This document shows positions 20,363-54,666 of a stretch of DNA of 64,000 nt, in pieces; positions within the stretch are counted from its first letter, which is position 1, and each line of letters begins with the position of its first letter. The notes beneath the pieces are model-generated. The model was not told where the DNA came from and made no database searches. It saw only the letters and a list, made by a program, of their open reading frames with translations. The stretch is from Lasiosphaeria ovina (taxonomy: Eukaryota > Ascomycota > Sordariomycetes > Sordariales > Lasiosphaeriaceae). The DNA lies in assembly GCA_033439765.1 (NCBI GenBank), contig JAULSN010000017.1:1-64000 (forward strand), given 5' to 3'. A program made the translations under genes and the position numbers.

Positions 20363-22222
20363 ACGTACGTAATAAGCGAGTGTCGTAGATAAGCGAGTGT
20401 CGTACGTTTCATAACCTACCACAGCTATCCTCAATTATACAACTATAATATTAGGAAATAATAATAACTAAATTAGAAATAGATGAATCAGACGATTCTA
20501 TAGCCTCCTTATATATGCGTACATTATGGCCAGGCTTACCGCATATACTATAGCACCGAATCTTCGTCCGAGACCCCCCTATACGACTACCATTTTGTCG
20601 TATTTCCTGGTCTAACTACTCACCCACAGCCTTCTAATCTAGTAGATCCTATGCCTCTTGTATAGTAAGTGACCCTCTAAGCCGCACACGTGTTTTTTTA
20701 GCTCTCCGTCGCTTATTAAGCCCCTTATTAGCCTTTCGTAATACTAAGACCTCCGTATATAGAAGAGCCACCTCGTACATTATAGCCATTATACCTTTGG
20801 CTAATCGATCTATAGTAGTCAGCATCGGGGTTGGAGAGCTGCCTTAATAGTTGGAAATTCGAGTTTTAATAAATGCTGATTATGAGGTAGCCTCTCGAGG
20901 GTTATATGGCGTTTGGGAGGCCTAAGGTAGTGCTATGGTTGGGCTTGAGGCTGGGGGTGTTGGGGTCCGAATACGTATATCTAGCTTAGATATCACCCTC
21001 TCTGGGTCGTACGGCATAAGGCCAGCTCCGGTAAAACCCCCCTAGATATTCTTTTCTATAATCGAAGTAAAAAACGCCTCTCTAAATATATAAAGAAACT
21101 CCAACTTACTAATATATATAATGTTCATCCGTATAAACTACTCAATTTGGCGGCTATACGCCTTCTTCAAAGGCCCAAAACAACTAATATCTAAAGGCTG
21201 GAGTATATATGAAGAGTATAGAGGCATATAAAGTGTAATAATATTATGCTCTTTATAATAGTTATCGAATTCTTTAGAGTAGTAGCTTTCGTAGCTATTA
21301 AGGATTAATAACCGGTATATACCCTTTGTACGAGATGCTATATAGAAATCGAAGTAACGAATCCAATCCATACCTTTCTTATTCGTAGTCCAGCCATTAT
21401 CGGTTATTATAATACGCTAGTCGGCCGGGAGGTTATATTCTTTATACTAGTTAGTAAGGTAATATTACCTAGCTAAGATAATAAATAGTAGGATGGCCCA
21501 GCCTAGAGTATTTACTCCTTAGATAACTATAGCCTACTCTCGATTACTAGGCTGGGCCTATTTAGCCCTACTACGCCCCTCTGAGGTAGTAACTACTATA
21601 GTGGCGATAATAATGCCTATTATAAAGCCGGTCTCGTCGAAATTATAAATATCGTCGTTAAGGATACCGTATTTGACCTTAATATTATATATAAGGGTAA
21701 ACTACTCGCGAATAATCGTTAGATCTTCGTATTTAGCCCTCTAATAGTCGTATTTACGCGTAAAACGCGTCCGAAGTTCTGGCTAGCGCTTAACGAAGTT
21801 ATGAGCCCATCGTACGCCGATAGGGGGCGCGTCGCGTTCGCGTAGTAATCGGTTGGCCATATCTTCCACGTATAAAAGCCGGGGATGAAATGCGCGTATA
21901 TATAGCTTAGTAATATATTGAATAATCGTTTTCTCTTCTAAATCCGTAAGCTTGCGTGAGTTGGCCGGTATATCGCGTCGTATAGGCATACCGCGTCGGC
22001 GGCGCCCTAGGGTTCTATCGCAAACTTCATAGATCTCTACTGCGCGTCGTACACTTAGATCTTTATCGCGTTCGAGGGCTTGGAGGGCCAAGATAATATT
22101 GGCTTCGTTCGAAGAAGTTAGTATATTAGATGGTGGAGAAAAGTAGTATTGAGTATAAAGGTATTTCGCGTCGTAGAAAGTGCGACACTCGCTTATCTAC
22201 GACACTCGCTTATTACGCACGT
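20363..22222 (-). mobile_element. Fot1/pogo-type transposon, element 1 (word TGTCG)
   Basis: A 1860-bp element with TIRs starting ACGTACGTAATAAGCGAG (left) and ACGTGCGTAATAAGCGAG (right, inverted). It is flanked by TA target duplications at 20361-62 and 22223-24. Each TIR contains two direct copies of ATAAGCGAG, each followed by TGTCG. The transposase runs on the minus strand. It is moderately RIP-mutated and much younger than its AT-only surroundings. Confidence 0.85.
20451..22124 (-). pseudogene. Fot1/pogo-type transposase, element 1
   Basis: A 1674-bp frame (557 codons) with start ATA (mutated ATG) at 22124 and several RIP-type stops. Surviving blocks: Psq-type helix-turn-helix (residues 1-50, including VEIYEVCDRTLGRRRRG), CENP-B-type helix-turn-helix (about 51-115: DIPANSRKLTDLEEKTIIQY, YVEDMANRLLRER), and the DDE domain with DETGF near 163, LLILNSYES near 276 and QPLDI near 312. 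The second catalytic Asp reads Asn, as expected from TG-to-TA mutation of an LDGH motif. A C-terminal zinc knuckle ends near CGKPGHNVR. The protein would cut and paste the element by its TIRs. This copy is inactive. Confidence 0.8.
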
Positions 22223-22224
22223 TA

Positions 22225-24231
22225 TTCTTAATTATTTAATTAAATCTTTTTAATCTTTTTATAACTTTTAAATAAAATAATAATAAAAGTAATTAAGATT
22301 TAATTTATTAAAAACTTAATCTTATTAAAGTTTTATAAATTTAATTTAAAAATCTTATATTTTATAATTATATTATAAATAAAATTAAATTATATATTAA
22401 TTATATAAATATAATTATTATATTTTAAAATTTAATTATTATTATATAAAGTTTAAAGCTTAATATAATTTAATATATAATATATTATATATTATATATA
22501 ATAAGTTAATTATATTTTTTATTATATTATAATTTAATAAAAATCTTTATTTATAAAGATTAAGAACCTTTTATATAATAACTTATTCTTTAAAAGGATT
22601 TAGTTTTTAAGAATTAATATTAATTTTTATTTAAAGCAGGATTTTATTATATTATTACTTAAGTATTTTTAAAATATTAAATAATATTATATAATACTTT
22701 AAAAGTTAAGTTTTTTATTATATTTTATAATTTAAAAGTAAATTATAATTATACTTTATTATAAAGAATTATATTATTAATAATAATTTAATTAATAATA
22801 AAAATAAATTATTTATTAATTATATTAATTATCTTTTATATTTATTAATATAATTTATTATTATTTTTTATATTATTATATAATAATTTAATTATAATAA
22901 TAAAGTAAATTTATTATATTAATTTAATTATCTTTTATATTTATTAAATAATTTATTATTATTTTATATATATTATTATTTAATATACTTTATAATAATA
23001 TAATAAATTTTTTTTTTTAATTTAACTTATTTTTCTTAATATTTCTTTAATTATTAATAAATTTATATTATATTTAATCTTATTATACTTCTTATATTAT
23101 TATAAAATTAATAATTTAATTTATATAATACTTTTAATAAATCTTTTATTTAAGTAATTTAAATTTATTCTTTATAAAAAGTATACTTCTTATTTAAATA
23201 TATATTCTTTTAACTTTTTAATATTTTATAAATATTTAATTAACTTTAAAAATAATATAAATCTTATTTAAAAAAGAGTTATTTTATAAATAATTAACTT
23301 TATACTTTTTATTAATTACTTAATTACTTAATAATTAAAAATATATTTATTAAAAAGCTTCTTTAATATTTAATTATATAATATTATATATATATAAGTT
23401 ATAAAATAACTTTTATTAAATTATATAATATTTAAAGGACTTATAAATTAACTTTAAAGAATATTAATATTAATATTTAAAGCTTAATATTAAGCTTTAA
23501 TATAATAATTTAAGAATTATATAATATTAAATTAATATTTTAAAACTTAACTTTAATATTTTTAAATATTATAATCTTAAAATAAATAATTTTAAAAATA
23601 AAGAAGAACTTAATTTTAATAATATAATTAATATAAGTTTAATAAAGTCTTTAAGTTCTTTATTATATAATTATTTTATTATATTAAAGTACTTAATATT
23701 AAGAAGTTAAATATAATAAGAAGAGTATATAAAGAAGTAACGAATAATAATAATCTTCTCTTTATAAAAATCCTTAAATTAAGTTAATAAAAAACTCTTC
23801 TAATTATTAAGGATAATTATTTAAAACCTCCTTGATTATATTTAATAATATACTTATTAAAATATTATTAAATTTATTTAAATTATCTTATTAATTATTA
23901 TAAATATTAAAAAGATTATATTTAATATATTATAAATAAAATAATTAATATCTTAAAGGATTTAAAAATAAAGTTAAAATAAAGTTATATTATTTATATA
24001 CTTAATTATATTACTTATCTTAATTCTTAAATTATAAATTACTTATTTTAATTATATATTATATATAACCTTTATTATAAGCTCGTTTTATTAAAATTAT
24101 AAAAGTTATAATCTTAATTATTATATTTTATTTAAATATTAATTATTAATTAAAATATATATTTATTTAATTACGATCTTTATAAAAGGTCTTTAAAAGT
24201 TATATATATATAATATATATATATTAAGTTT
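22225..24231. repeat. Old AT-only relics
   Basis: Extremely AT-rich, CpT-type composition. The part at about 23590-23870 resembles the same Fot1 transposase region as element 0 (GAAGAGTATATAAAG and CTATT-like spacing against element 1 at 21200-21310), so it is probably another decayed Fot1-type copy. The remainder, including a stretch of TTA/TAA-type sequence at 22700-23030, cannot be assigned. Confidence 0.4.
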
Positions 24232-24466
24232 TATTAAAATAATAATATTAATAACCGTATATTAACGGGAGTTATATAACCGCGTACGTATAAAAAGGCA
24301 TATGCCGCGCGTAGACCTTCCGCCCGTATATATAAAACCCCGGTCGCTTTAAAACCTAACTTAATTCTATAAATAAATAAAATAAAACTAATATTATACT
24401 CCATTAATAATAAATCTACTACTCTTAAACTTATAAGAACCTTATATAATTTAATAATTATAAATA
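24232..24466 (+). repeat. Left LTR of C'
   Basis: A 235-bp LTR, the reverse complement of the LTRs of element C. It includes the motifs ATAACCGCGTACGTATAAAA and CCGCCCGTATATATAAAACC. The TATATAAAA stretch could have been the element's TATA box. Confidence 0.75.
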
Positions 24467-26335
24467 CTAATTACTAAGTAGTTAAATACTTATAAAGAAG
24501 TAATATAAAAAAATAAGATTATATTACTAACGTATATATACTGAACTTTTAAAGGAGGTACGAAAGTATATATAATAATATCTCGTACTATTACTTAAAC
24601 GGAGCCCTTCTTTAAACTTTTAAGGAAAGAGAAGGATCTTTATTTAGAAAAATAAAGGAACTAAACGTATAACGACGTTTACGGCTATAAGTCGGGAGCG
24701 ACGTATATATAACTAGAACTTATATTATACGCCGTTATATAACCCTATTATACTTATTAAACTCCCCTATATATACCCTCTCCTTACTTTATTTATAAAT
24801 TATTAGAACCCCGGTTATACGATAACGACTAATCGTTAATAATATTATTAATATAGCTAGAGCTAGGGAGGATAGCTTCGAGCTTAAGAGCCGGGATAGA
24901 CTTAGAGTCGTACGAAGATATCTAGGAGAAGAGTAATATCCTAAGTACGGTATAAAAGGTAAATATTAATTAGGACCTTTAGGACGAGGCTTAAACCCTA
25001 AATATTATTTAACCCCTTTAAGATAAGGAAGCTATAACTTACTTTATACGTACGATAATAAAGATTATTTAGTTCTCTCTATCTAAGGAAGATATTTAAG
25101 TATCCTTCTATAAAGATTTTAAGGAATAAACGACCGTATAATTCAACTAAGTTAATCATACGTTTAGAAAAGAAATAATTATAATCGTTAAAAAGTATAG
25201 TATCCTAATTACTAGTAAGATAATCTTAGAGTAGATTATAAGTATTATAATATTAGAATTTAAGGAGGAACTACGTAATAAGCCGGACTCTAAAGTAGAG
25301 AGTATTCCCCCGCTTAAGCGGACCGTACGGAGGACTCTACCGCTATTAGATCTACGGCGCTCTTAGTCCTACGGAGGAATATAAAAACTTAATAAGGTAG
25401 GATTACTAATCCTACCGTACGCTCGTAATAACCTATTATACGGGACGCCTTATATTAAGTACTTTAATATCTTATTAATTAGACTTATAAAGAACGGGCT
25501 AATAAATAGCCGTAAGGTTATAGTATTTAATAAATTATAAAAGTTATTATAAAATTATATAAGACGTCCGTATAATATCCTATATAATAAGGTAAGGTAC
25601 TTTATTAATATATATTAAAGACTAGAGATTCTAGAAGATATATACTTTACTATCTTTCTAGAGACCCTATCTAATTATACGGAGGACTATTATTTAAGTT
25701 ATATTAGACTAGATAAACGTTAGGACGAAGTCTACTTTATATTAAATACGTACTTTAATATTATAAGACTACCGGAGGGAATAAGAGATATTATATTATA
25801 CTGGGCTAGGTACGCGCGAGCTTCTAAGAGAGGGAGAGAGAGAGTACGCGCGCGGGTATAAGAGAGAGAGAGAGAGTAAGGTATAAAGAAGGAAGGAAGA
25901 AGGAAGAGAGCTAGGAAAGAAGAGCTGATTTATACCCGGGCGGCTAGCCTCGAGAGGGTAAGGCCCGGACCTTCAGCTCCTTCCGTACGGACTTCGAATT
26001 CACTCTCTTCGTTATATAGAACCCTAAATACGTACTAGTAGGTAAATATATTATCGGATAAACCGGTATAATAAGAGCGGAATAAATTATTAATTTTATC
26101 CTTAATCTTAAATTAATATTAAAGTCTTTATTATATATAAATAAGGTAATATATAATTAAGGTAAATAATAATCCGATAAAGTAGTATATTAAGAGTATA
26201 ATTATATTAAGTAAATTACGGAAATAGGTTATTTTAAGAAGGACTTATCTCTAAGTTATATAAGGGAAATAAGAAGGCGTTTATATAATAAGAAGGAAGA
26301 CCGGAGGCGTATAATTATAAAAGAAAAGTTATTAG
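24467..26335 (+). pseudogene. C' internal region, broken gag-like frame
   Basis: Aligns with the internal part of element C read in reverse. Many TAG/TAA codons interrupt the frame. Readable scraps match C (for example the ILNTYFN stretch). No reverse transcriptase, RNase H or integrase motif was found. The join near 25785-25800 (GGAGGGAATAAGAGATATT) marks an internal deletion relative to C. A GA/CG-rich low-complexity patch (25830-25900, GAGAGAG with GCGCGCG) follows. Confidence 0.45.
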
Positions 26336-26380
26336 TATTAGAATAATAATATTAATAACCGTATATTAATAGGAGTTATA
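26336..26380 (+). repeat. Right LTR of C', first part
   Basis: The first 45 bp of the right LTR, ending in TTATA, the 5-bp target duplication of retrotransposon B. It continues at 34242. Confidence 0.75.
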
Positions 26381-26382
26381 TA

Positions 26383-28243
26383 ACGTGCGTAATAAGCGAG
26401 TGCACTAGATAAGCGAGTGTACCACTTTCCACCACCCGACTATATTTATTCTCAATTATAATACAACCATACTAAGAAATTACAATAACTGAATCAGAAA
26501 CAGATGAATCAGACGATTCTGCAGCCTCCTTATACGTGCGAGCATTATGGCCAGGCTTGCCGCATACGCCACAGTATCGAATCTTCGTACGAGACCCCCC
26601 TATACTACTACTATTTTGTCGTGTTTCCTGAGCTAACTACTCACCCATAGCCTTCTGGTCTAGTAAATCCTATGCCTCTTATATAGTAAGTAACCCTCCA
26701 AGCCGTATACGTGTTTTCTTAGCTCTCCGTCGCTTACTAAGCCCCTTATTGGCCTTTCGTAGTATAGAGACCTCTATACGAAGAAGAGCCACCTCGTACA
26801 TTACAGCTATTATACCTTTGGCTAATCGATCTATAATAGTTAGTATTAAGGTTGGAGAGCTATCCTAATGGTTAGAAATTCGAGTTTTAATAAATGCCGA
26901 CTATAAGGTGGCCTCTCGAGGGTTATATGGCGTTTAGGAGACCCAAGGTAATACGGTGGTTGGGCTTAAGGTAGGGGGTATTGGGGTCCGAATACGCACA
27001 TCTAACTTAGATATTACCCTTTCTAGGTCGTACGGCACAAGGCCAGCTCCGGCGAAACCCCCCTAGATGTTCTTTTCTATAATCGAAGTAAAAAACGCCT
27101 CTCTAAATATATAAAGAAACTCCAACTTACTAATATATATAATGTTCATCCGTATAAACTGCTTAATTTGGCGGCCATACGCCTTCTTTAACGGCCCAAA
27201 ATAACCAATATCTAAGGGCTGGAGTATATACGAAGAGTATGGAGGCATATAAAGTATAATAATATTATACTCTTTATAATAATTATCGAATTCTTTAGAG
27301 TAGTGGCTTTCGTAGCTATTAAGGATTAATAGCCGGTATATACCCTTTATACGAGATGCTATATAGAAATCGAAGTGCCGAATCCAATCTATGCCTTTCT
27401 TATTCGTAGTCTAGCCATTATCGGTTATTACGATACGCCAGTCGGCCGGGAGGTTATATTCTTCATACTAGTTAGCAAGGTGATATTACCTAGCCAAGAT
27501 AATAAATGGCGGGATGGCCCAGCCTAGAGCATTCACTCCTTAGATAACTATAGCCCACTCTCGATTACTAGGCTAGGCCTATTTAGCCTTACTACGGCCA
27601 TCTGAGGTAGTAACTACCATAGTGGCGATAATAATACCCATCATAAAGCCAGTCTCGTCGAAATTATAGATATCGTCGTTAAGGATACCGTATTTGACCT
27701 TAACGTTATACATAAGGGCAAACCACTCGCGAATAATCGTTGGATCTTCGTATTTAGCCCTCTAGTAGTCGTATTTACGCGTAAAACGCGTCCGAAGGTC
27801 TGGTTAGCGCTTAACGAAGTTATAAGCCCATCGTACTCTAATAGGGGGCGCGTCGCGTTCGCGGAGTAATCGATTAGCCATATCTTCCACGTAAGAAAGC
27901 CGGGGGTGGAATGCGCGTACACATAGTTCAATTATATACTGAACAATCGTTTTCTCTTCCAAATCGGTAAGTTTACGTGAATTGGCTGGAATATCGCGTC
28001 GTGAAGGTTTACCGTCGCGTCGTCGTATAAGTATTATATAGTGAATATCGTAGATCTTACCTGTAGCTCGTAGGGTGAGGTTTTTATCGCGTTGGATAGC
28101 TTTAAGGGCTAAAATTATCTGTGCCTCTTTTAAAGTGGAAGACATGTTGGGTTGTGGAATAATTAAGGATTAAAGGTGGAGGTGGTGCGTCGCGTGGAAA
28201 GTGGTGCACTCGCTTATCTGGTGCACTCGCTTATTACGCACGT
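26383..28243 (-). mobile_element. Fot1/pogo-type transposon, element 2 (word TGCAC)
   Basis: A 1861-bp element with near-perfect TIRs starting ACGTGCGTAATAAGCGAG at both ends, flanked by TA at 26381-82 and 28244-45. Each TIR repeats ATAAGCGAG twice, followed by TGCAC (one left repeat reads TGTAC). It keeps more CpA and TpG than any other copy in the island and is probably the youngest or least mutated. It lies exactly at the left end of retrotransposon B, having inserted into the TATA that begins B's LTR. Confidence 0.88.
26472..28145 (-). pseudogene. Fot1/pogo-type transposase, element 2
   Basis: A 1674-bp frame with an intact ATG at 28145. The first 114 codons are uninterrupted; later stops are of RIP type. 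Residues 1-50 are a Psq-type helix-turn-helix of a different class from element 1 (MSSTLKEAQ at the start, IYDIHYIILIRRRDGKPS before the conserved block). From residue 51 (DIPANSRK) the protein matches element 1 almost exactly. The catalytic block again has Asn for the second Asp. The C-terminal zinc knuckle is well preserved: CGVCGKPGHNARTY, with Tyr where the fourth ligand Cys should be (TGT to TAT). Inactive, but the best preserved copy. Confidence 0.82.
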
Positions 28244-28507
28244 TATAAGAGAGGGTAGGTACGCTTAATTAAGGTGGTTATAATATAGGTAAGAAGAAGG
28301 GCGAGCAATGAGTGGCATTAGTATAAGACTTTAACCTAGCCCTCGTAAAGGAAGGTGGGCGAGGGCCGCTACTTATATACATACTCAGGGGCTCCGTTCC
28401 TTATAACGGCAGTAGCTGTGCCAACTAGCAGTGGTCTGGCTAGTTAGTAATAGGTAATGGGCGCACACAAAGGTGTACGTACGTACTTAGGGTGCTCTTT
28501 CCTTATA
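28244..28507 (-). repeat. 3' LTR of retrotransposon B
   Basis: 264 bp. Compared with the 5' LTR it keeps CA/TG at many positions where the other has TA, for example GCGCACACAAAGG against GCGTATATAAAGG. This copy has clearly suffered less RIP. Confidence 0.85.
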
Positions 28508-28523
28508 ACTATCCCCCCCCCCG
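28508..28523 (-). other. Polypurine tract of B
   Basis: On the minus strand a run of ten G (complement of C at 28513-28522) lies directly before the 3' LTR, the site where plus-strand DNA synthesis would be primed. It fixes the element's orientation. Confidence 0.65.
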
Positions 28524-28587
28524 TAGATCGACGTCCTCGTCGATCTTGAACCTTATTTATTATCCTCCCTCTAATAAGAGCAAAAGC

Positions 28588-28659
28588 GCCGCGGTAGTAT
28601 AGTGGTTAATACCCTAGTATCTTTGCTAGAGGTCGGGGGTTCGAATCCTCCTCGGGGTA
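28588..28659 (+). tRNA. tRNA-like sequence inside retrotransposon B
   Basis: A 72-nt stretch, antisense to B's genes. The acceptor GCCGCGG pairs with TCGGGGT (4 Watson-Crick, 2 GU, 1 mismatch). The D arm has a perfect GTAT/ATAC stem and the loop AGTGGTTA. The T arm is GGGGG-TTCGAAT-CCTCC (one GU). The Pol III A box (TAGTATAGTGG) and B box (GGTTCGAATCC, perfect) are intact. The anticodon arm is poor: CTAG/CTAG stem with an 8-nt loop TATCTTTG, so no anticodon can be assigned (CTT or TCT possible). A TTTTT run follows at about 28709. It could be a tRNA pseudogene, a SINE-type Pol III head, or a captured tRNA. It lies between the polypurine tract and the end of pol. Confidence 0.4.
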
Positions 28660-28699
28660 TCTTAGTTTATAGGCATTACCTACGGGTCGTACTCGTAGA

Positions 28700-33933: not shown

Positions 33934-33977
33934 AGTGACCGGCTCGATCGTTACTAGTAGTAGGGAGGTTGAAGAAT

Positions 33978-34436: not shown

Positions 34437-34441
34437 AGTTT

Positions 34442-34915: not shown

Positions 34916-34917
34916 TA

Positions 34918-36778
34918 ACGTGCGTAATAAGCGAGCGCCGTAGATAAGCGAGCGCCGCACTTTTTAACGCGTCGCGACCCCCCAGCTTTAATACTCTATT
35001 TCTTAACTAAAAACCATAGCTTCCATCTCTAAAGAAGCCAGAGTAATTCTAGCCGCCGAAGCTATTAAAAATAACAAAAAGCTAAGCAAACGAACCGCAG
35101 CGAAAATCTACGAGGTTAATAATAGAACTATTCGCCGTCGACTTGCCGGCACACCTACACGATACGATATTCCAGCCAACTCGCGTAAGCTTACGGATTT
35201 AGAAGAGAAAACGATTATTTAATATATTACTAAGCTATATATACGCGTATTTCATCCCCGGCTTTCATACGTGGAAGATATGGCCAACCGATTACTACGC
35301 GAACGCGACGCGCCCCCTATTAACGTACGATGGGCTTATAACTTCGTTAAGCGCTAGCTAGAACTTCGGACGCGTTTTACGCGTAAATACGACTACTAGA
35401 GGGCTAAATACGAAGATCTAACGATTATTCGCGAGTAGTTTACCCTTATATATAATATTAAGGTTAAATATAGTATCCTTAATAACGATATTTATAATTT
35501 CGACGAGACCGGCTTTATAATAGGTATTATTATCGCTACTATGGTAGTTACTACCTTAGAGGGGCGTAGTAGGGCTAAATAGGCCCAGCCTAGTAATCGA
35601 GAGTAGGCTATAATTATCTAAGGAGTAAATGCTCTAGGTTAGGCTATCCTACTATTTATTATCTTAGTTAGGTAATATTACCTTACTAACTAGTATAAAG
35701 AATATAACCTCCCGGCCGACTAGCGTATCGTAATAACCGATAATAGCTAGACTACGAATAAGAAAGGTATAAATTAGATTCGTTACTTCGATTTCTATAT
35801 AGCATCTCGTATAAAGGGTATATACTAGTTATTAATCCTTAATAGCTACGAAAGCCACTACTCTAAAGAATTCGATAACTATTATAAAGAGTATAATATT
35901 ATTATACTTTATATACCTCTATACTCTTTATATATACTCTAGCCTTTAGATATTAGTTATTTTAGGCCTTTGAAGAAGGCGTATAGCCGTTAAATTAAGT
36001 AGTTTATACGGATAAATATTATATATATTAGTAAGTTAGAGTTTCTTTATATATTTAAAGAGGCGTTTTTTGCTTCGATTATAGAAAAGAATATTTAGGG
36101 GGGTTTTACTAGAGCTGGCCTTATACCGTACGACCTAGAGAGGGTAATATCTAAGTTAGATATACGTATTCGGACCCTAATACCCCCAGCCTTAAGCCTA
36201 ACCATAGTACTACCTTAGGCCTCCTAAACGCTATATAACCCTCGAGAGGCTACCTTATAATTAGTATTTATCAAAACTCGAATTTCTAATTATTAGGGCA
36301 GCTCTCTAACCCTAATACTAATTACTATAGATCGATTAGCTAAAGGTATAATAGCTATAATATACGAGGTGGCTCTTTTACGTTCGGAGGTCTTAGTATT
36401 ATAAAAGGCTAATAAGGGGCTTAGTAAGCGACGGAGAGCTAAAAAAACACGTATATAGCTTAGAGGGTTACTTATTATATAAGAGGCATAGGATCTACTA
36501 GATTAAAAGGCTATAAGTAAGTAGTTAGCTTAAGAAATATAATAAAATAATAGTAGTATAAGGGGGTCTCGTACGAAGATTTAGTACTATAATATTTATA
36601 ATAAGCTTAGCTATAATATATATATATATAAGGAGGTTATAGAATCGTTTAATTTATCTATTTCTAATTTAGTTATTATTATTTCTTAATATTATAATTA
36701 TATAATTAAGGATAGATATAGTAGGGTAGTAAAAAGTACGGCGCTCGCTTATTTATAGCGCTCGCTTATTATATACGT
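34918..36778 (+). mobile_element. Fot1/pogo-type transposon, element 3 (word CGCCG)
   Basis: A 1861-bp element with TA target copies at 34916-17 and 36779-80. TIRs start ACGTGCGTAATAAGCGAG (left) and ACGTATATAATAAGCGAG (right, inverted). Repeats are followed by CGCCG (one right repeat decayed to CGCTA). The transposase runs on the plus strand, opposite to elements 1, 2 and 8. Confidence 0.85.
35016..36689 (+). pseudogene. Fot1/pogo-type transposase, element 3
   Basis: A 1674-bp frame; the start is ATA (RIP of ATG). Residues 1-50 form a third helix-turn-helix class (ASISKEARVILAAEAIKNN; IYEVNNRTIRRRLAGTPT). From residue 51 it is again near-identical to elements 1 and 2. The DDE domain has DETGF with Asp at 163, LLILNSYESH with Asn at 276 (expected Asp) and QPLDI-like Asp at 312; the spacing of the last two fits a DD35D-type triad. 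Stops occur at many Trp/Gln positions, and the zinc knuckle cysteines are mostly Tyr. Inactive. Confidence 0.8.
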
Positions 36779-36780
36779 TA

Positions 36781-37080
36781 TATTCTAATAAAAAATTAAA
36801 GAATTAATATTAGAAATAATACTTCTTTATTAAAAATTAAAAGAAAGTAATTATATAAAATAAAAGAAAAAGCTTAATAATAAAACTTTTAATTTATTTT
36901 AAAAAAAAAAATATATTAAAAATATTAAAATAATATTAAATATTATAATTAATTTAAAAAGAAAGATATTAAAATTAAAAATATAATAATTTTATAAAAG
37001 TATTAAAAAATATTATAGTATTTAATAAACTTAAAAATTATAAATAAAACTTATATTTAAATAAAGTAATATTAAGAATA
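36781..37080. repeat. AT-rich relic
   Basis: AT-only spacer between elements 3 and 7 with an A-run at 36900-36909. No structure recognised. Confidence 0.4.
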
Positions 37081-38041
37081 TAATATATATAATAAATAAG
37101 CGTATACTTTTTATTACCTTATTATATTTATCTTTATTAATAATTAAAATATTAAAAAATAATATAATTAAATTAAAATAAATAAATTAAATAATTTTAT
37201 AACTTCTTTATATAGATAGATATTATAATTAAGCTTATTAAATATTATAATATTAAATCTTTATATAAAACCCCTTTATATTATTATTATTTTATTATAT
37301 TTCTTAAATTAATTACTTACTTATAACTTTCTAATTTAATAAATCTTATACTTCTTATATAATAAATAACCCTTTAAGTTATATATATATTTTTTAAACT
37401 CTTTATTATTTATTAAGCTCTTTATTAGCTTTTTATAATATAAAGACCTTTATATAAAAAAGAATTACCTTATATATTATAATTCTTATACCTTTAGTTA
37501 ATTAATTTAGAATAATTAATATTAAAGTTAAAAAGCTACTTTAATAATTAAAAATTCGAATTTTAATAAATATTAATTATAAAGTAGCTTCTTAAGAGTT
37601 ATATAATATTTAAGAAGCTTAAGGTAATATTATAATTAAGCTTAAAACTAAGGGTATTAAAGTTTAAATATATATATTTAACTTAAATATTACTTTCTTT
37701 AAGTTATATAATATAAAGCTAGCTTTAATAAAACTCCTTTAAATATTCTTTTTTATAATTAAAGTAAAAAACGCCTCTTTAAATATATAAAGAAATTTTA
37801 AATTATTATATATTAATATTTATTTATATAAATTACTTAATTAATAATTATACGTCTTTTTTAAAAGCTTAAATAATTAATATTTAAAGGTTAAAGTATA
37901 TATAAAGAGTATAATAATATAAAGTATAATATATTATATTCTTTTAAATAATTATTAAATTCTTTATAATAATAGTTTTTATAATTATTAAAGATTAATA
38001 ATTAATATATATCTTTATATAAAATATATTAAAAATAAAAT

Positions 38042-39886
38042 ATATATATAATAAATAAGATAAATAATAAATAAGTTAAATACTTTTTATAACCTATTTA
38101 ATTACCTTTATTATATAATTATAATATTAAGAAATAATAATAATTAAATTAAAAAATTAATTAAATAATTTTATAACTTCTTTATATATATATATTATAA
38201 TTAAGCTTATTATATTATAATATTAAATCTTTATATAAGACCCCTTTATATTATTATTATTTTATTATATTTCTTAAATTAATTACTTACTTAACCTTTT
38301 AATTAATAAATCTTATTCTTCTTATATAATAAATAATCTTTTAAGTTATATATATATTTTATTAACTCTCCGTCGCTTATTAAGGTTATTATTAACCTTT
38401 TAAAGTATTAAAACCTTTATATATAAAAGAGCTACCTCGTATATTATAATTATTATACCTTTAATTAATTAATTTATAATAATTAATATTAATATTAAAG
38501 AGTTATTTTAATAATTAAAACTTCGAGTTTTAATAAATATTAATTATAAAGTAACTTCTTTTAAGTTTTATAATATTTAAAAGACTTAAGGTAACGATAT
38601 AATTAAGCTTATTACTAAGGGTATTAAAGTTTAAATATATATATTTAACTTAAATATTACTTTCTTTAAATTATATAATATAAGGCCGGCTTTAATAAAC
38701 CCCTTTTAAATATTCCTTTTTATAACTAAAGTAAAAAACGCCTTTCTAATCTTATAAAGAACTTCTAACTTATTAATATATATAATATTTATTTATATTA
38801 ATTACTTAATTAAATAGCCGTACGCCTTCTTTAATAACTTAAAGTAATTAATATTTAATAATTAAAGTAAGTATAAAGAGTACGGAGGTATATAAAGTAT
38901 AATAATATTATACTCTTAATAATAAGTCTTAAATTCTTTAAAGTAATAATTATTATAACCGTCGAGAATTAATAATTAATATATTCCCTTTATACGAGAT
39001 ATTATATAAAAATTAGAATATTAAATTTAATTTATACCTTTCTTTTTAATAATTTAATTATTATTAATTATTATAATATATTAAGTACTTAAAAGGTTAT
39101 ACTCTTAATATTAATTAATAAAGTAATATTACTTAATTAAGATAATAAATAATAAAATAATTTAACTTAAAGTATTTACTCCTTAAATAATTATAACTTA
39201 CTTTTGATTATTAAGCTAAGCTTACTTAACTTTATTATAATTATTAAAAGTAATAATTATTATAATAAAGATAATAATACTTATTATAAAGCTAGTCTTA
39301 TTAAAATTATATAAATCTTTATTAAGGATATTATACTTAGCCTTTATATTATATATAAGCGTAAATAACTTATAAATAACTTTTAAATCTTTATATTTAA
39401 CCTTTTAATAATTATATTTATATATAAAACGCTTTTAAAATTCTAATTAACGCTTAATAAAGTTATAAGCTTAACGTATATTAATAAAAGGCGCGTCGCG
39501 TTCGCGTAATAATTAATTAGTTATATCTTCTATATACGAAAGCCGGGGATAAAATATACGCGTATATAACTTAATAATATATTAAATAATTATTTTCTCT
39601 TTTAAATCCGTAAGCTTACGCGAATTAGTTAAAGTATTACGTTATATAAGTTTATTATTACGTCGGTTATATATAATATTTACTATAACTTAATATATTA
39701 TTATTATAATTCGAATATTAAGTTTTAAATCGTTTTAAATAACCCTAAAGGTTAAATTTACTATAGCTTCGTATAAAAGAAGAGATATTTAAAGTTATTA
39801 AAGAATTAAGTATTTTATAAAGAGGAGGCGCGTCGTATTAAAAGTATTTAACTCGCTTTTTTATTTATCTCGCTTATTATATATAT
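38042..39886 (-). mobile_element. Fot1/pogo-type transposon, element 5, inserted in element 7
   Basis: About 1845 bp. The right TIR (inverted) reads ATATATATAATAAGCGAG; the left is decayed to ATAATAAATAAG. The repeat-associated word is close to TTAAA (inner repeats GTTAAATAC at both ends). The transposase is on the minus strand and heavily mutated. Residues leading to the conserved TNSRKLTD block align in length with the element 2 N-terminus but differ in sequence. The ends are accurate to a few bases, and the left TA duplication is not clean. Confidence 0.65.
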
Positions 39887-40003: not shown

Positions 40004-40442
40004 ATATATATAATAAGCGAGTTAGTTAAATAAGCGAGTTAGCTACTTTAACTTCTTATATATAACCCTAAGAATATATCTTTATAAAAGTTATTTAATT
40101 CTTAATAAAAACTTCTAAAAACTTCAAACTTATAATATAAGTATATAATATAAGTAAAAATATATATTATTACTTACTAACTAATTTAGCTTTAAAAAAC
40201 GGAATATAACCCTAGGGTTATATATATAAGTAAGATTATAACTATAAGTTTACTATCTTATACTTAATATAAAATTTTATATAAAATTATAATAAGTTTC
40301 TTTATTATTATAAACCCTAATATTAAATCTCGGGGCCTTTTACTAAGGTTTAGTAATTTTAATAAGGGTTAAATTTTAGGGTTATATTAGGGAAATCGGG
40401 TAGCTAACTCGCTTATCTAGCTAACTCGCTTATTACGTATAT
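40004..40442. mobile_element. 439-bp MITE with Fot1-type TIRs (word TTAGC)
   Basis: TIRs ATATATATAATAAGCGAG (left) and ATATACGTAATAAGCGAG (right, inverted). Each TIR contains two ATAAGCGAG repeats followed by TTAGC (one TTAGT). It is flanked by TA at 40002-03 and 40443-44. It interrupts element 7 at the position equivalent to CTAGCTAAGATAATA in element 1, which dates it after element 7. The interior has no transposase sequence. It contains CCCTAGGGTTATATA-like and TAGGGTTA-like motifs and no reading frame, so it must be moved in trans. Confidence 0.8.
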
Positions 40443-40905: not shown

Positions 40906-41459
40906 TTAATAACTCTTCTTTTATAACCGTACGTCTCCGGTCTTCCTTCCTATTATAAATAACGCCTTCTTATCTCTCTTATATAACTCAGAGATAAGTC
41001 CCTCTTAAAATAACCTATTTCCGTAGTTTACTTAACGTAATCGTACTCTTAGTATACTTCTTTATCGGATTATTATTTATCTTAATTATACGCTACCTTA
41101 ATCGTACGCTACCTTATTTACTTATTTAGGTACGTACGTAATAGAGAAGTGAGCCGTACCGGCTTACTTTATCTAATAGCCGGTACTATATAAGATAACG
41201 GTAAGATAAGTAGCCCGCTCCGTACTCGCGTACCGGGTCGTCCGATAATATATTTACCTTTATATAACGACGAGATTAAGTTCGAGGTCCGTACGGAAGG
41301 GGTAGTAGGTCCGGGCCTTACCCTCTTAAGGCTAGCCGCCCGGGTATAAAGTAGCTCTTCTTTCCTAACTCTATTCCTTCTTCCCTTCTTCCTTATACCT
41401 TACTCTCTCTCTTATACCCGCGCGCGTACTCTCCCTCTCCTTCTCTTAGAAGCTCGTAC

Positions 41460-43400: not shown

Positions 43401-43405
43401 GGTAG

Positions 43406-43658
43406 TGTCACGGTCGGCACCAGCGCCAAGGCCCCACCACGGATTTAAGCTCATTACTAGCCCCGATTAGGATTAGTCGTACGTGACCTCCCGCAAGCCC
43501 CAGAGGTCCGTGCTCCCTAAGCCCTAGCCCATACTTACCCCGCGACCACAATCGCACCTTTATAGATTTTCTTCCTTTCTTCTTCACCTTAGAATCGTTA
43601 GACTATAGTATAGCTATATTAGCGATCCTTTTCCTAGTTGCTATTAACCGCTATTATA
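43406..43658 (+). repeat. 5' LTR of D
   Basis: 253 bp. Keeps many CA dinucleotides (CGGCACCAGCGCCAAGGCCC) that are almost absent from the internal region. About a dozen C/T or G/A differences from the other LTR. Confidence 0.85.
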
Positions 43659-43949
43659 TTATTCTAAGGTTAATATCCACCGCCTAGGAAGGCTTTCTAA
43701 TATCCCACCGACCTAAAGAAGAAGAAACCGACTAATAAGATTAACCTAACGAACCCCGACCGAAGACTTGAAGTATCTCTATTACGATACCGAGATCCCC
43801 CGAAGAAGCCGCTACTACTACGTAGAAGGCTAGAAATGAAGTTAACTATAACCCTATAGCGTTGGACGCTATAATACCGCCGTAAGATAAGATCATAACG
43901 TAGCACCCTAATCTAATACGAATAGGAGTAGTACGCGGAGCGTCGCGCC

Positions 43950-46900: not shown

Positions 46901-49900
46901 AAGACCTTATCCATAGCCCTCTCTATAAGATATCTCTAGAGGAACTAGAGGCTTGTCGTATATATATTACGGAGTACCTATAAAAGGGATTTATCGAGCC
47001 TAGCTCAGCCCCCTAGGTAGCCCCGGTGCTAATAGTAGCCAAGCCTGGAGGAGGACTCCGTTTTTATATCGACTACCGACGACTGAACTCAATTACCCGG
47101 AAGGATCGGTACCCGATCCCCCTTATCGACAAGACCCTCACGCTAATCGCTAGTAAGAAGATCTTTACTAAAATCGATATCCGGTAAGCCTTCTATAGGC
47201 TAAGAATCCACGACGATAATATCGAATTAACCGCGTTTAGGATAAGGTACGGGTCCTACTAGTACTAAGTCCTACCCTTCGGGTTAACTAATAGACCCGC
47301 TACTTTCTAGCGATTTATTAACGAAGTATTAGTAGAATACCTCGATATATTCTATAGTACCTATATCGATAATATTCTTATCTTTTCTAACTCCCTAGAG
47401 GAATATAAGGAGTATATTAAAAAGGTCCTTACTAAGTTAAGAGAGTACGGCCTCTAGGCCGATATTAAGAAATACGAGTTCTACGTTACCGAGACTCGCT
47501 ACTTAGGCTTTATTATTGGAAAAGACGGTATACGCGTAGACCTAGAAAAGACCTCTATAGTTAGAAACTAGGAAAGGCCTACGACCGTAAAAGGGATCTA
47601 GTCTTTCCTTAAGTTCTATAACTATTTCCGCCGGTTTATTAAAGATTATAGCCGGATAGCCCGCCCTATAACGGACCTTATAAGGAAAGACCAACTATTC
47701 GTATAGTCACCCTATTATTAGGAGGTATTTAAGGAGCTTAAGCACTCCCTACTCACCGCCCTACTACTCGGATACTTCGACTTCTACGTAGAAACCCGTA
47801 TAGAAACGGACTCCTCGAACGGCGTAGTTATAGGAGTGCTTACGTAGATAGGGGAGGATAGCGAATAGTACCTAGTAGCCTATTATTCGGAAACCCTATA
47901 AGGAGCCGAATATAATTACCCGATATAAGATAAAGAGCTCCTCGCTATCGTTAGAGGTCTAGAAACCTAGCGTATTATACTATAAGGGTTATAGAAACTA
48001 TTCCTCGCCGTTACCGATTATAAGGCTCTTAAGTTCTACTCGGAGAAGAGACTACTAGGTTAGCGATAAGCGAACTAGTAGGATGATTTATTACGATATA
48101 ACGTCTAGTTCATATATCGACTAGGGAAGGAGAATATTATAGCGGACGCGCTCTCCCGTAAAATAGAAGATCTAATTACTATTAAAGCGAAGCGTAAAGC
48201 GGAACGTTATATACGGATCTTTAAGCTACTAGAGGGATAAATTAATATACTAGCCTAGGATAAAGGAGATAAACTCCCCTCCCCGGAGTAGACTAGTACG
48301 CTAGCCCTAAAGATCTCCCTCCTAGAGAACGACGAACCGCTAACTTAACCTTTAGGTATCGAGGTTATCGATAAGATTATTATCGCTAATCGTAAGGATC
48401 CGGAGATAAGCGTATAGCGAGAGAGAGCGTAATAGGGAGATACCAAGTTCGCCCTATCCGAATTAGGACTCCTTACGCGCGATGGAAAACTGGTAGTCTT
48501 AGGAAAGGACAACCTCTAGATATTACTTATAAAAGAGGTTTATAGTAGAATTATTACGGCTTATCCCGGGCGTAATAAAACTTTCAAGCTCTTAAAGCTA
48601 TACTACTAGTAGCCCGAGATAAGGACGTTCTCCAACTAATACGTCGCGAACTATATAGCCTACTAACTAGCACGCTATCCTAGGGATAAGACCCCTGGTT
48701 TGCTATATCCCTTGCCTATTCCACTCCGGCCTTAGTCTTCGATAGTTATTGACTTCAAAAGCCAACCCTTAGACCGATACGGATTTAATAATATTCTCGT
48801 AATAGTAGATAGACTTAGTAAGTAACCCTAGTATATCCCCTATTATAAGAACGCTACGGCTAAGGACGCTACCCTAATATACTATAAGGGACCCTATCGA
48901 GTATTCGGATTACCTTACGAAGTCGGATCGGATTAAAGACCCTAGTTCATAGCGGACTTTACCGACGAAATATCTAGACTACTCGGAATTAAGTAGAAGC
49001 TCTCTTCTACTAGATACTCTTAGAGCGCCGGCCAAGTAGAAATCATAAACCAATATATCGACTAACGTCTACGACCTTTCGTCAACTATTACTAGGATAA
49101 CTAGTCTAGAGCGATACCCGTTATAGACGCCGTAGCGGGCTCCTTACTATATAATAGTATAGGACTATCCCTATACGAGGTCCTAATGGGTTTCCCGATG
49201 AACTTACCGTTCGACTAGAGCGTAAGGACCCCCCTCGATACTACTATTCCTTACCGCGAACGGCTTAATAGATAAGAAGCTTAGGATATAGCGAAACGTA
49301 TATAGGGATTTGTTAACTCGGCCAAAGATACGATACGTATAGTATAGTAGAGGTAGGCGAAGTAGGCTAATAAATATCGTAGGGAACCTGACTTCGGTCC
49401 CGGCGATTACGTCTTTATTATTAAGAAATCCTAGTCTACTAACCGCCCGAGCGATAAGCTAGACTACCCGTTAATACGCCGCTACTATAAGATCCTTAGT
49501 ATGGTAGGATACTCCTACTAACTAGAAGTCCCGGACGGTTGGAAGGGCTCCTTAGTATTTCACGCCGATCGCCTAAGGAAGTACCTAAATAACCCCGTAC
49601 CGGGATAGACTAACGATAACCCGCCAGGAGAGCTATTTAATAATAAGGAGGAATAGGAAGTAGACAAGATTATTACTTCCCGAACAAACCGAAACGTGCT
49701 CCAATACTAGGTGGAATAGCGCGGATAGGATCCAGATCCAACGTAGTACGATATATCAGGATTCAAGAATACGCCCCTAAAGCTGGCCGATTTCCATAAC
49801 CAATACCCCGATAATACAGGCCCGCCGAAGCGACTGCAATAGTAGCGCGAGGCGTACGAGCGCGACGAAATTGATCTACCTTACGAAGACGATAATATAA

Positions 49901-49950
49901 CGATGGACTCCGGAGTTATACGCATACGCCGATTAATACGAAAGAAATAA
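43950..49950 (+). pseudogene. gag-pol of retrotransposon D, RIP-inactivated
   Basis: Order seen: gag (MEFEIFYRYLINKLEGNANY at 44762); a decayed zinc knuckle near 45430; reverse transcriptase with LPFGLTN at about 47275 and YIDNILIFS at 47361-47387 (YIDD-type site with Asp to Asn); RNase H (TDSSNGVVIGVL, about 47811); integrase with YPGRNKTFKL at about 48562 (His to Tyr in the zinc-binding part) and IDFKSQP...DRYG at about 48750; a C-terminal chromodomain ending DFHNQYPDNTGPPKRL (to about 49850); stop at 49948. Dozens of TAG/TAA stops replace Trp/Gln codons. The start is uncertain. Chromovirus-type organisation, inactive. Confidence 0.78.
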
Positions 49951-50049
49951 AGCGGTTTATTCCAGAAGGTTACTTATTCGATTACTGTTGGTAGCTATAA
50001 AATTTTTTTTTTTTCATATAAAGGACTCGAGGGCGAGCCTTTTTCGGAA

Positions 50050-50057
50050 GGGGGGGG
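50050..50057 (+). other. Polypurine tract of D
   Basis: Eight G preceded by GGAA, three bases before the 3' LTR. Fixes the plus-strand orientation. Confidence 0.6.
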
Positions 50058-50060
50058 TAA

Positions 50061-50313
50061 TATTACGGTCGGCACCAGCGCCAAGGCCCCACCACGGATT
50101 TAAGCTCATTACTAGCCCCGATTAGGATTAGTCGTACGTAACCTCCTACAAGCCCCAGAGGTCCGTGCTCCCTGAGCCCTAGCCCATACTTACCCCGCGA
50201 CCACAATCGCACCTTTATAGATTTTCTTCCTTTCTTCTTCACCTTAGAATCCTTAGACTATGGTATAGTTATATTAGCGATCCTTTTCCTAGTTGCTATT
50301 AACCGCTGTCATA
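50061..50313 (+). repeat. 3' LTR of D
   Basis: 253 bp. Starts TATTACGG (TGTCACGG in the 5' LTR, two RIP-type changes) but keeps CGCTGTCATA at its end, where the 5' LTR has CGCTATTATA. Confidence 0.85.
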
Positions 50314-51127
50314 GGTAGAGTCCTCCGTACGGTCCGTTTAGGCGGGGGAACTAATCCTATAATACTTATAATCTACTCTAAGATTATCTTACCGGTAATT
50401 AGGATACCGTACTTCTTAATAATCGTAATTATTTCTTTTCTAAACGTACGATTAACTTAGTCGAATTATACGACTATCTATCCTTCGAAGTCCTCGCGGA
50501 AGGACGATTAGATTTACTTTGAGTTTATATTAAACTATATAATCTCTATTATCGTACGGGCGAAGTAGGTTATAGCTTCCTTATCTTAAAGGGGTTAGGT
50601 AATATTTAGGGTCTAGGCCTCGTCCTAGAGGTCCTAGTCGATATTTACCTTCTATACCGTACTTAGGATATTACTCTTCTCTTAGATATCTTCGTACGAG
50701 TCGTTACCCTTACTCGGGCCTTTTCCTACGCCCGAGGCTAATACTATCTTCGGCGATAACGGGGTATTAATAATATTAATAAAGTTATTAATAATTAATC
50801 GCGATCGTATAACCGGGGTATATATAGGGGAGTTTAGTAGGTATAGCGGGGTTATATAGTAGCGTATAATATAGGTTCTAATTATACGTACGTCGCTCCC
50901 GACCTATAGCCGTAAACGTCGCTATACGCTTAGTTCCTTTATTCTTCTAAATAGAGATCCTTCTCTTTCCTCGAAAGTTTAAAGAAGGGCTCCGTCTAGG
51001 TAATAGTACGAGATGCTATTATACGTACTTTCGTACCTCCTTCGAAAGTTCGGTACGCGTACGTCGGTAGTACGATCTCGTCTCTTTACGTTACTTCTCT
51101 ATAAGTATTTAACTACTTACTAATTAA

Positions 51128-51364
51128 TATTCGTAATTCTTAAACTATATAGGGATCCTATAAGTCTAAGGGTAGTAGATCTACCGTTAGGGGGGGGGGT
51201 ATAATATTAATTCTATTTTATCTATTTAAGGAACTAAACTAGGTTCTAAGGCGACCGGGGTTTTATATATACGGGCGGGAGGTCTGCGCGCGGTACGTAC
51301 CTTTATACGTACGCGGTTATACGACCTCCGTTAATATACGGTTACTAATATCGTTATTCTAATA
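51128..51364 (-). repeat. Right (5') LTR of C
   Basis: 237 bp. Contains a nine-G run and the conserved ACCGGGGTTTTATATATACG block. Confidence 0.8.
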
Positions 51365-51897
51365 TAAGGATAAACTACTCGTGAATAATTATTAAATCTT
51401 TATATTTAGCCTTTTAATAATTATATTTATATATAAAACGCGTTTAAAGATCTAATTAACGTTTAATAAAGTTATAAGCTTAACGTTTATTAATAAGGGG
51501 CGCGTTATATTTATATAATAATTAATTAATTATATTTTTTATATAATAAAGCTAAGGATAGAATACGTATAAATAAAGCTTAATTATATATTAAATAATT
51601 ATTTACTCTTTTAAATTTATAAGCTTATACGAGTTAATTAAAATATTATATTATATAAGTATATTAATAAGTCGATGGTAAATAATTTTATTATTAACTT
51701 TATAAATTTTTATTATAATTCGTTTACTTAGCTTTTTATTATTTTTAATAACTTTAATAATTAGAATTACTTTAACTTCTTTAGAAATAGAAGTTATAAT
51801 TTTTAATTAAGAAATAAAGTATTAAAGTTAGGGGGTCGCGATACGTTAAAAGGTACGGCGCTCGCTTATTTATAATACTTACTTATTATATATATTA

Positions 51898-52813
51898 AAG
51901 TATTTTATAATTATATTTATTTAAAAACTTTTAATATTCTATTTATTATTATTATTTATCTTATATTATAAGAGTATAAGCTTTATTCTTTAAGAGTATA
52001 TAATCTCTTTTTTAAACTTAAACTAGTCGTATAAATTCTTTAATTATAATATATAATATACTTATATTATATAGGCGCTTTATATATTATTCTTCTTCTT
52101 ATCTTTTTTAATTTAACTTATAAGTCTCTTTTATCCGTCTTAATAATAACCGTTTTTAATTATAAAAAAGTTAATTATTAAGACGTTATAAGGATATAAC
52201 TTATATATTATATAATTTACCTTTACTTTCTCTTATCGCCTTAAGTATAACTTATTAACTTAACTCCTTATTTCTTTCTTTAATAAGTACTTTCTTATAA
52301 TAACTTTATATTACCTTTTATTATATTTACCTCTCTTATATTATACTTATTACTTTATATAAGTTTTATATACCGTTTTCTTTATTATATAATCTCTTTA
52401 ATTAATACTTATAATAATTATTAAGTTATACTTACTTTATTTACCCTTTATTATCCTTTTTAATTAATAATATTATTATTTATATACCGCTTAAGATATA
52501 TATATATCGTTAAGCGTATTCTTTCCGTTTTAAGCCGGGCTTTTAATAATAATATAATACCCTTTATAAGCGGGTATAATCCTTACCGCCGTATATAATA
52601 ATAGGCTTCTTTTTTTAACTCTTAACCCTCTTCCTTTTTTTTTTTTTTCTCTTCTTCTTTAAGTCTTTAATTTATTACTTTACTTAGCCCTTAAATTATA
52701 TTACCCTCGCTTATATATTATTTACCTTATTTAATTATATTATTTATATATTTTATAAATCTTCTATTCTTTTTAATTAATTATTTTATAATTTATTATT
52801 ATTATTAATAATC
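51898..52813. repeat. Old AT-rich relic
   Basis: CpT-type old composition with some CpG (52500-52600) and a T10 run near 52640. Texture suggests a mutated coding repeat. No termini or motifs recognised. Confidence 0.4.
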
Positions 52814-52815
52814 TA

Positions 52816-54666
52816 ACGTATATAATAAGCGAGCGCCGTAAATAAGCGAGCGCCGTACTTTTCACTACCCTATTATATCTATCCTTAATTATATAACTAT
52901 AATACTAGGAAATAATAATAACTAAATTAGAAATAGATAAATTAGACGATTCTATAACCTCTTTATACGTACGTATATTATAACTAGGCTTACTATAGAT
53001 ACTATAGTACCGAATCTTCGTACGAGACCCCCCTATACTACTACTATTTTGTCGTATTTCCTAAGCTAACTACTTACCTATAGCCTTCTAATCTAATAAA
53101 TCCTATACCTCTTATATAGTAAGTAACCCTTTAAGCCGTATACGTATTTTTTTAGCTCTCCGTCACTTACTAAGCCCCTTATTAGCCTTTCGTAGTACTA
53201 AGACCTCCGAACGTAAAAGAGCCACCTCGTATATTATAGCTATTATACCTTTAGCTAATCGATTTATAATAGTTAATATCGGGGTTAGAGAGTTACCCTA
53301 ATAGTTAGAAATTCGAGTTTTAATAAATACTAATTATAAGGTGGCCTCTCGAGGGTTATATAACGTTTAGGAGGCCTAAGGTAGTACTATAGTTAGGCTT
53401 AAGGCTAGGGGTATTAGGGTCCGAATACGTATATCTAGCTTAGATATTACCCTCTCTAGGTCGTACGGTATAAGGCTAGCTCTAGTAAAACCCCCCTAGA
53501 TATTCTTTTTTATAATCGAAGTAAAAAACGCCTTTCTAAATATATAAAGAAACTCTAACTTACTAATATATATAATATTCATCCGTATAAACTACTTAAT
53601 TTAGCGGCTATACGCCTTCTTTAAAGGCCTAAAGTAATTAATATCTAAAGGCTAAAGTATATATAAAGAGTATAGAGGTATATAAAGTATAATAATATTA
53701 TACTCTTTATAATAGTTATCGAATTCTTTAGAGTAGTAGCTTTCGTAGCTATTAAGGATTAATAGCCGGTATATACCCTTTATACGAGATACTATATAGA
53801 AATCGAAGTAACGAATCTAATCTATACCTTTCTTATTCGTAGTCTAGCTATTATTAGTTATTACGATACGCTAGTCGGCCGGGAGGTTATATTCTTTATA
53901 CTAGTTAGAAAGGTAATATTACTTAGCTAAGATAATAAATAGTAGGATGGCCTAGCCTAGAGTATTTACTCCTTAAATAACTATAGCCTACTCTCGATTA
54001 CTAGGTTAGGCCTATTTAGCCTTATTACGGCCGTCCGAGGTAGTAACTACTATAGTAGCGATAATAATGCCCATTATAAAGCTAGTCTCGTCGAAATTAT
54101 AGATATCGTCGTTAAGGATACCGTATTTGACCTTAATATTATATATAAGGGTAAACCACTCGTGAATAATTATTAGATCTTCGTATTTAGCCCTCTAGTA
54201 GTCGTATTTACGTATAAAACGCGTCCGAAGGTCTGGCTAACGTTTAACGAAGTTATGAGCTAAGCGTTTGCCGATAGGGGGCGCGTTACGTTCGCGTAGT
54301 AATCGGTTAGCTATATCTTCCATATAATAAAGCCGAGGATAGAATACGTATAAATAGAGCTTAGTTATATATCGAATAATCGTTTACTCCTCTAAATCTA
54401 TAAGCTTATACGAGTTGGCTGGAATATCGTATCGTATAGGTGTGCCGGTAAGTCGACGGCGAATAGTTCTATTATTATTTTCGCTACGGTTCGTTTACTT
54501 AGCTTTTTATTATTTTTAATAGCTTCGGCGGCCAGAATTACTCTGGCTTCTTTAGAGATGGAAGCTATGGTTTTTGGTTAAGAAATAGAGTATTAAAGCT
54601 AGGGGGTCGCGACGCGTCAAAAAGTACGGCGCTCGCTTATCTACGGCGCTCGCTTATTACGCACGT
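52816..54666 (-). mobile_element. Fot1/pogo-type transposon, element 8 (word CGCCG)
   Basis: A 1851-bp element; TIRs ACGTATATAATAAGCGAG (left) and ACGTGCGTAATAAGCGAG (right, inverted); TA target copies at 52814-15 and 54667-68. All four terminal repeats carry CGCCG. Close relative of element 3. Confidence 0.85.
52905..54568 (-). pseudogene. Fot1/pogo-type transposase, element 8
   Basis: A 1664-bp frame, ten bases shorter than in elements 1-3. The gap is in the helix-turn-helix (element 3 has CTACGAGGTT between AAAAT and AATAATAG; element 8 does not) and shifts the frame. The N-terminal class is that of element 3 (SISKEARVILAAEAIKNNKK). The start is ATA. The remainder, including the shared Asp-to-Asn change in the DDE block, follows the other copies. 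Inactive. Confidence 0.78.

What the first reader, a model, noticed from the sequence alone, without database searches (positions are those of the whole stretch)
20363..54666. Modular Fot1/pogo family: swappable DNA-binding domain co-varies with a 5-base word in the TIR
Seen directly: every TIR holds two direct repeats of ATAAGCGAG, each followed by a 5-base word. The word agrees between repeats and between both ends of one element but differs among elements: TGTCG (element 1), TGCAC (2), CGCCG (3, 7, 8), TTAGC (MITE), about TTAAA (5). The transposases are 557 codons and near-identical from residue 51 on. Residues 1-50, the Psq-type helix-turn-helix, fall into distinct classes (..EVCDRTLGR.. 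in 1, ..DIHYIILIR.. in 2, ..EVNNRTIRR.. in 3). The three CGCCG elements share one class even though they are separate insertions. The sequence next to the 3' TIR is conserved across classes, yet its word matches the 5' end, so simple 5' recombination cannot explain the match. Inference: the first helix-turn-helix reads the word, and domain plus word change together, separating lineages so that they do not cross-mobilise.
Basis: partly seen in the sequence, partly recalled or inferred. Interest (0 to 1): 0.88.

Follow-up and report, generated by a model that had tools for sequence, protein, structure and literature searches.

The report
Jumping genes with matched address codes
A family of fungal jumping genes shares one cutting enzyme but carries different five-letter address words at its ends, and each word goes with its own version of the enzyme's DNA-reading part, so related elements in one genome can probably tell their own ends from each other's.

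Summary
In the 51.7 Mb genome around the window, 41 full-length Fot1/pogo elements carry four copies of a 5-base word; in 41 of 41 all four trace to one parent word, allowing C>T/G>A decay. All 60 five-prime ends that could be classed by codons 1-50 carry the expected word, four after allowing such decay. Between class representatives, transversions (not made by RIP) fall from 13-26% in the 5' segment to 0-3% in the core and rise at the 3' end in 14 of 15 pairs; clearest is TGTCG against TTAGC: 56/254, 0/1544, 13/62. Core variants cross classes (78 of 2542 states at 62 sites), end variants never (0 of 4568 at 112 sites). So old end lineages carry a core mixed by recombination, rather than a cassette jumping in. 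The first helix-turn-helix very likely reads the word. Helix residues 36 and 41 track word bases 5 and 2, but that rule is partly post hoc and one of two testable written predictions failed. Binding and non-cross-mobilisation were not testable. The family is known (DAHLIAE1-like); the word-reader series on a shared core is, as far as my searches show, a new variant.

The parts
20363..22222 (-). Element 1, full length, word TGTCG, TA on both sides; transposase frame on - strand (17 stops)
21993..22022 (-). Element 1 codons 35-44, recognition helix CDRTLGRRRR
26383..28243 (-). Element 2, full length, word TGCAC; its core shares 6 of 7 TCGGA-type states between element nt 866 and 1478
28014..28043 (-). 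Element 2 codons 35-44, recognition helix (decayed, HYIILIRRRD)
34918..36778 (+). Element 3, full length, word CGCCG
35118..35147 (+). Element 3 codons 35-44, recognition helix NNRTIRRRLA
38038..39886 (-). Element 5, heavily decayed; words ATAAA/TTAAA derive from ATGAA/TTGAA; left end approximate (91 of 130 positions fit)
40004..40442 (.). MITE with word TTAGC (decayed), TA flanks; 12 more intact-ended copies in the genome, all TTAGC
51596..51895 (-). Element 7, 5' part, CGCCG class (first 300 nt 299/300 compatible with C>T/G>A decay of a CGCCG copy); outer repeat decayed, far end not defined
52816..54666 (-). Element 8, word CGCCG; N-terminus shortened

Best explanation
These are DAHLIAE1-like Fot1/pogo DNA transposons. 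Each TIR holds two 17-bp transposase sites. In each site the conserved 9-mer ATAAGCGAG is probably bound by the conserved second (CENP-B/Tc5-type) helix-turn-helix, and the variable 5-base word by the first (Psq-type) helix-turn-helix, whose predicted recognition helix is residues 36-43. Several old lineages with different words live in this genome. Their bodies (about codon 50 to just past the stop) are kept alike by internal recombination or gene conversion between lineages, perhaps during repair of excision gaps. Ends and reader stay together because both ends lie outside the tract and because a mismatched element would not move. Shown: word-class association, mosaic structure, shared core tracts. 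Inferred: DNA contacts, which helix-turn-helix reads which part, conversion as the process, and lack of cross-mobilisation.
Against: No binding or transposition data. Of two written residue predictions that could be tested, L092 met R41 and L094 failed (H41, E36, A37) (prediction, result, logged). The residue 36 rule and its acid/base grouping were found after looking, on 8-12 partly related classes; its own prediction could not be tested. It needs H36 in TGCAC and D36 in CGCCG to be the residues before decay (copies with Y and N exist), and a judged register in L108 and L110. The helix is not uniquely variable: residues 2-4, 6, 21, 46, 65, 75 and 96 have entropies of 2.5-3.0 bits, like 35-37, 40 and 44 (2.7-2.9), and residue 41 has 2.2. 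Low identity at the ends could itself block conversion there, without selection. Foldseek gives 1HLV only E 0.26, no match below 0.001. In homologs the decline towards the N-terminus is less sharp, and 11 of 13 pairs with core identity 0.95 or more are not below 0.6. Only one genome's DNA was available.
Confidence: 0.8

Rival explanations
1. Cassette swap: ends plus N-terminus of foreign elements were recombined onto one resident core, by separate exchanges at the 5' and 3' end.
For: Same chimeric topology. L094's N-terminus is sister to L107's (12/191 transversions) while its core start is nearer the seven resident copies compared (1-4 of 84 against 7 of 84).
Against: Needs two coordinated exchanges per event; the tracts actually seen are internal and leave both ends in place.
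Confidence: 0.25
2. Recent point-mutation divergence under selection: one young family whose helix and words changed quickly, with no recombination.
For: The recognition helix is among the most variable stretches; the words CGCCG and TGTCG differ by two transitions only.
Against: The non-coding leader diverged as much as the helix (27% transversions) while the core shows 0/1544 for one pair; core haplotypes cross class borders.
Confidence: 0.04
3. RIP artefact: classes and words are C>T/G>A decay of one element.
For: RIP-type changes are abundant (601 of 679 C>T in CpA); some words (TATAT, TGTAC, TTAAA) are decay products.
Against: Classes differ by transversions, which RIP does not make; 35 of 41 elements have all four words exact.
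Confidence: 0.01
4. Word and N-terminal class are linked only by descent; the word is not read by the first helix-turn-helix and drifted neutrally with the ends.
For: Linked ends of old lineages would stay associated without contact; no binding data.
Against: The word is kept in four copies per element; apart from C>T/G>A decay, differences between repeats of a class fall on bases 1, 3 and 4, not 2 or 5; the same helix on diverged N-termini goes with the same word; residue chemistry tracks base 5.
Confidence: 0.15

Closest known systems
DAHLIAE1 family of Verticillium dahliae (Fot1/pogo; PMC3441728: section 9 and passages read)
   Same: About 1.9 kb, TA target sites, TIRs of 41-62 bp starting ACGT with 15-17 bp internal direct repeats, ORF from nt 100, 551 aa, HTH_psq 7-50, HTH_Tnp_Tc5 57-120, DDE_1; several subfamilies in one genome.
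   Different: Its subfamilies are reported as 73-74% alike over whole elements, not different at the ends only; in the parts I read no link between helix-turn-helix and repeat sequence is described. Its TIR letters are in a supplement I could not see.
Mariner lineages that no longer cross-mobilise (Lampe et al. 2001, seen only as cited in passages of PMC4161770)
   Same: TIR and transposase specificity diverge so that related elements share a genome independently.
   Different: There, as described in those passages, lineages differ generally in sequence; here ends and reader differ over a nearly identical, recombining core.
CENP-B and its 17-bp CENP-B box (1HLV; 17 bp from passages of PMC7438015)
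   Same: Two helix-turn-helix domains (recalled); 17-bp unit; top VIA-align match of the N-terminal model.
   Different: A host protein with one fixed site, no variable word series (recalled); similarity is structural only (10% identity).

Membership tests
Fot1/pogo, DAHLIAE1-like | TA target site duplication | tested here: met
   41 of 41 full-length copies have TA on both sides
Fot1/pogo, DAHLIAE1-like | TIR starting ACGT with internal direct repeats of 15-17 bp | tested here: met
   Both ends start ACGT in the 11 copies printed; decayed copies such as the window MITE start ATAT; repeats 17 bp apart
Fot1/pogo, DAHLIAE1-like | Single intronless ORF from about nt 100, 551-557 aa | tested here: met
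   ATG at element nt 99-100 and a 557-codon frame; every near-full-length copy listed has at least one stop; intact 557 aa homologs exist elsewhere
Fot1/pogo, DAHLIAE1-like | DDE_1 domain | tested here: met
   97-109 bits against cut-off 22 in 5 of 6 proteins given; the sixth is a 113-aa N-terminal piece
[quoted passage not shown]
   Of 6 proteins given, psq listed in 4 and above cut-off only in L039 (22.2 against 20.4); Tc5 listed in 4 at 18-21 bits, below 22.2; helices predicted for both
Fot1/pogo, DAHLIAE1-like | Place in a transposase phylogeny | not tested
   No tree was built
CENP-B-type bipartite binder | Two helix-turn-helix domains spanning a 17-bp site | tested here: inconclusive
Non-cross-mobilising sister lineages | Transposase of one lineage does not bind the ends of another | not testable with these tools
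   Indirect only: 12 intact-ended MITE pairs all carry TTAGC as first word

The most novel reading that the evidence does not exclude
Fungal Fot1/pogo transposons keep an old, trans-species series of end specificities, comparable to incompatibility alleles: the core circulates freely by gene conversion while word and recognition helix are inherited as one unit, and two helix residues (36 for base 5, 41 for base 2) form a simple code by which new specificities arise.
Probability: 0.4. Interest if true: 0.85.

Novelty: new variant of a known kind. Interest (0 to 1): 0.75.

Why it matters
How sister transposon lineages become independent inside one genome is usually studied between whole diverged elements.

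Tried and rejected
Point-mutation-only and RIP-only origins were rejected. A general residue-base code for all five bases was tried: only residue 36/base 5 and residue 41/base 2 stood out, with residue 37/base 2 weaker; the overall helix-word distance correlation is weak (r 0.24, p 0.046 for 12 classes; r 0.32, p 0.024 for 10). First written prediction: L092 met, L094 failed, L095 untested because only a 3' end is there. Second written prediction untested: the one piece obtained, L117, is 5'-truncated. DNA of other fungi: no relatives found in viral contigs (TIR pattern) or genome contigs, so the words of the homologs are unknown. Sequence search of solved structures gave nothing convincing for the helix-turn-helix domains. 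The full-length model (mean pLDDT 70.8) matches mainly over the catalytic domain, so the N-terminus was modelled alone. CGGCG (L107) and the two ATAGCG-type families (L108, L110) were added to the class table after the first prediction. Literature: listings; passages of five papers and section 9 of PMC3441728; none that I saw describes this link, but most subscription papers and all supplements were out of reach. Passages of PMC4188875 mention that end/transposase combinations give some specificity. That RIP makes C>T/G>A changes, and excision gap repair as a source of internal conversion, are recalled knowledge.

Full report
WHAT WAS CHECKED. The window is contig C9:1-64000 of a 51.7 Mb genome in 32 contigs. 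Element ends read TA|ACGTGYGTG ATAAGCGAG wwwww CAG AYAAGCGAG wwwww CAC in little-decayed copies, repeats 17 bp apart. The genome has 92 exact double repeats and 57 with ACAAGCGAG as second repeat. I fetched 76 stretches and later 11 small 5' pieces. 41 copies, four of them in the window, are full length by my rule (both TIRs within 2 mismatches, 1830-1860 bases between the outer repeats); more decayed, truncated or interrupted copies were left out of that set.

WORDS AND CLASSES. Full-length copies: CGCCG 14, TGCAC 12, TGTCG 6, TCGGA 6, TTAGC 2, ATGAA 1. In 41 of 41 the four words derive from one parent by C>T/G>A alone, in 35 exactly. TTAGC and ATGAA classes have fixed second-repeat variants (ATAGC, TTATC; TTGAA), which were counted as part of the class. 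Of 144 TIR ends examined (one end of TGTCG, in L048 and L094, counted twice), 60 are 5' ends within 0.02 transversion distance of one of eight N-terminal references; their words fit the class in 60 of 60, four of them only after allowing decay. The other 84 are 3' ends, MITE ends or ends without a classable N-terminus. Between-class distance is 0.14-0.28, except 0.08 between the two TCGGA-type N-termini. Rarer words: TGAAA (one element, L037), CGACG (L094), TGGAT/CGGGT (L092), CGGCG (L107), TGCAA and TCGCG (3' ends only, L091, L095).

MOSAIC STRUCTURE. Using transversions only, mean divergence between class representatives is 27% in the 5' leader, 18% and 28% in codons 1-20 and 21-40, 12% in codons 41-50, 3% in 51-60, 1.2-2.2% in the windows of codons 81-557, 7% after the stop and 12% in the 3' TIR. 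Fitted 5' breakpoints lie at codons 40-53 in 13 of 15 pairs; the 3' segment is richer in transversions than the core in 14 of 15 (not TCGGA against ATGAA, 0/18). Core haplotypes cross classes: three of twelve TGCAC copies, among them window element 2, share six of seven TCGGA-type states between nt 866 and 1478; L040 and L043 share nt 1612-1655 with TTAGC and with four of six TGTCG copies (six of six at 1655); six of fourteen CGCCG copies carry another haplotype over nt 291-768, two sites of it shared with all TGCAC copies, most of the rest private, so its source is not among the sampled classes. All three are bounded by own-class markers. Counting sites where class majorities differ, no state deviates at 112 end sites (0 of 4568), while 78 of 2542 do at 62 core sites; a looser choice of 39 core sites gave 118.

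OTHER FUNGI. The database holds thousands of relatives (4393 at E 0.001 or better among the 7991 candidates scored; the best 120 listed). Among 106 proteins compared (101 listed homologs, 5 own), in the 255 pairs with core identity at least 0.85 the N-terminus is the least conserved of the windows (0.62 against 0.79-0.95 from residue 50 on), with a smoother decline than in this genome; 141 of 255 pairs are below 0.6. For 5 of 5 own classes the nearest N-terminus belongs to a homolog from elsewhere. Own CGCCG resembles P0015, P0035 (Thermocarpiscus) and P0038, whose cores are distant, more than other own classes. This suggests that the end lineages are older than the shared core.

HOW IT WORKS. 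Two transposase sites per end; the conserved half-site goes with the conserved second domain, the word with the variable first domain. Conversion or recombination spreads cores, while both ends stay with their reader. Conversion as opposed to other recombination, and gap repair as its trigger, are inference; so is the block to cross-mobilisation.

VERDICT. A real, clean phenomenon in a known transposon family; the mosaic and the candidate code are the new parts.

Noticed in passing
L058, L061, L096: ATGAA-class elements with the same internal deletion (same junction, 1.1 kb between the TIRs) at three sites, probably a non-autonomous derivative.
   Followed up: partly
L087-L090, L104-L106; window 40004-40442: A MITE of about 440 bp: 12 pairs with intact repeats genome-wide (7 fetched), all with first word TTAGC, although only two full-length TTAGC elements were found.
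   Followed up: partly
L108, L110, L113, L114: More distant relatives with ATAGCGAG or ATAGCGTG repeats, 17 bp apart where both are readable (L108, L110); in L108 the two words differ (TGGCC, CGCGC).
   Followed up: partly
L107 and L109: Five-prime ends with only one repeat instead of two.
   Followed up: no
transposase residues about 518-544: A conserved CCHC zinc-knuckle-like motif at the C-terminus of the homologs, weakly matching solved zinc knuckles (best E 0.013).
   Followed up: no
L111, L112, L115: Three near-identical 5' parts of another Fot1-like ORF; no end repeats seen in the 411 bases fetched of each.
   Followed up: no
L056: A CGCCG element inserted inside a TGCAC element of the same family; L052 and L086 also look interrupted.
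   Followed up: no
window about 17000-24000 and 37000-39000: Blocks with G+C of 11-17% in 2-kb windows, typical of RIP, apart from element 1 inside the first.
   Followed up: no
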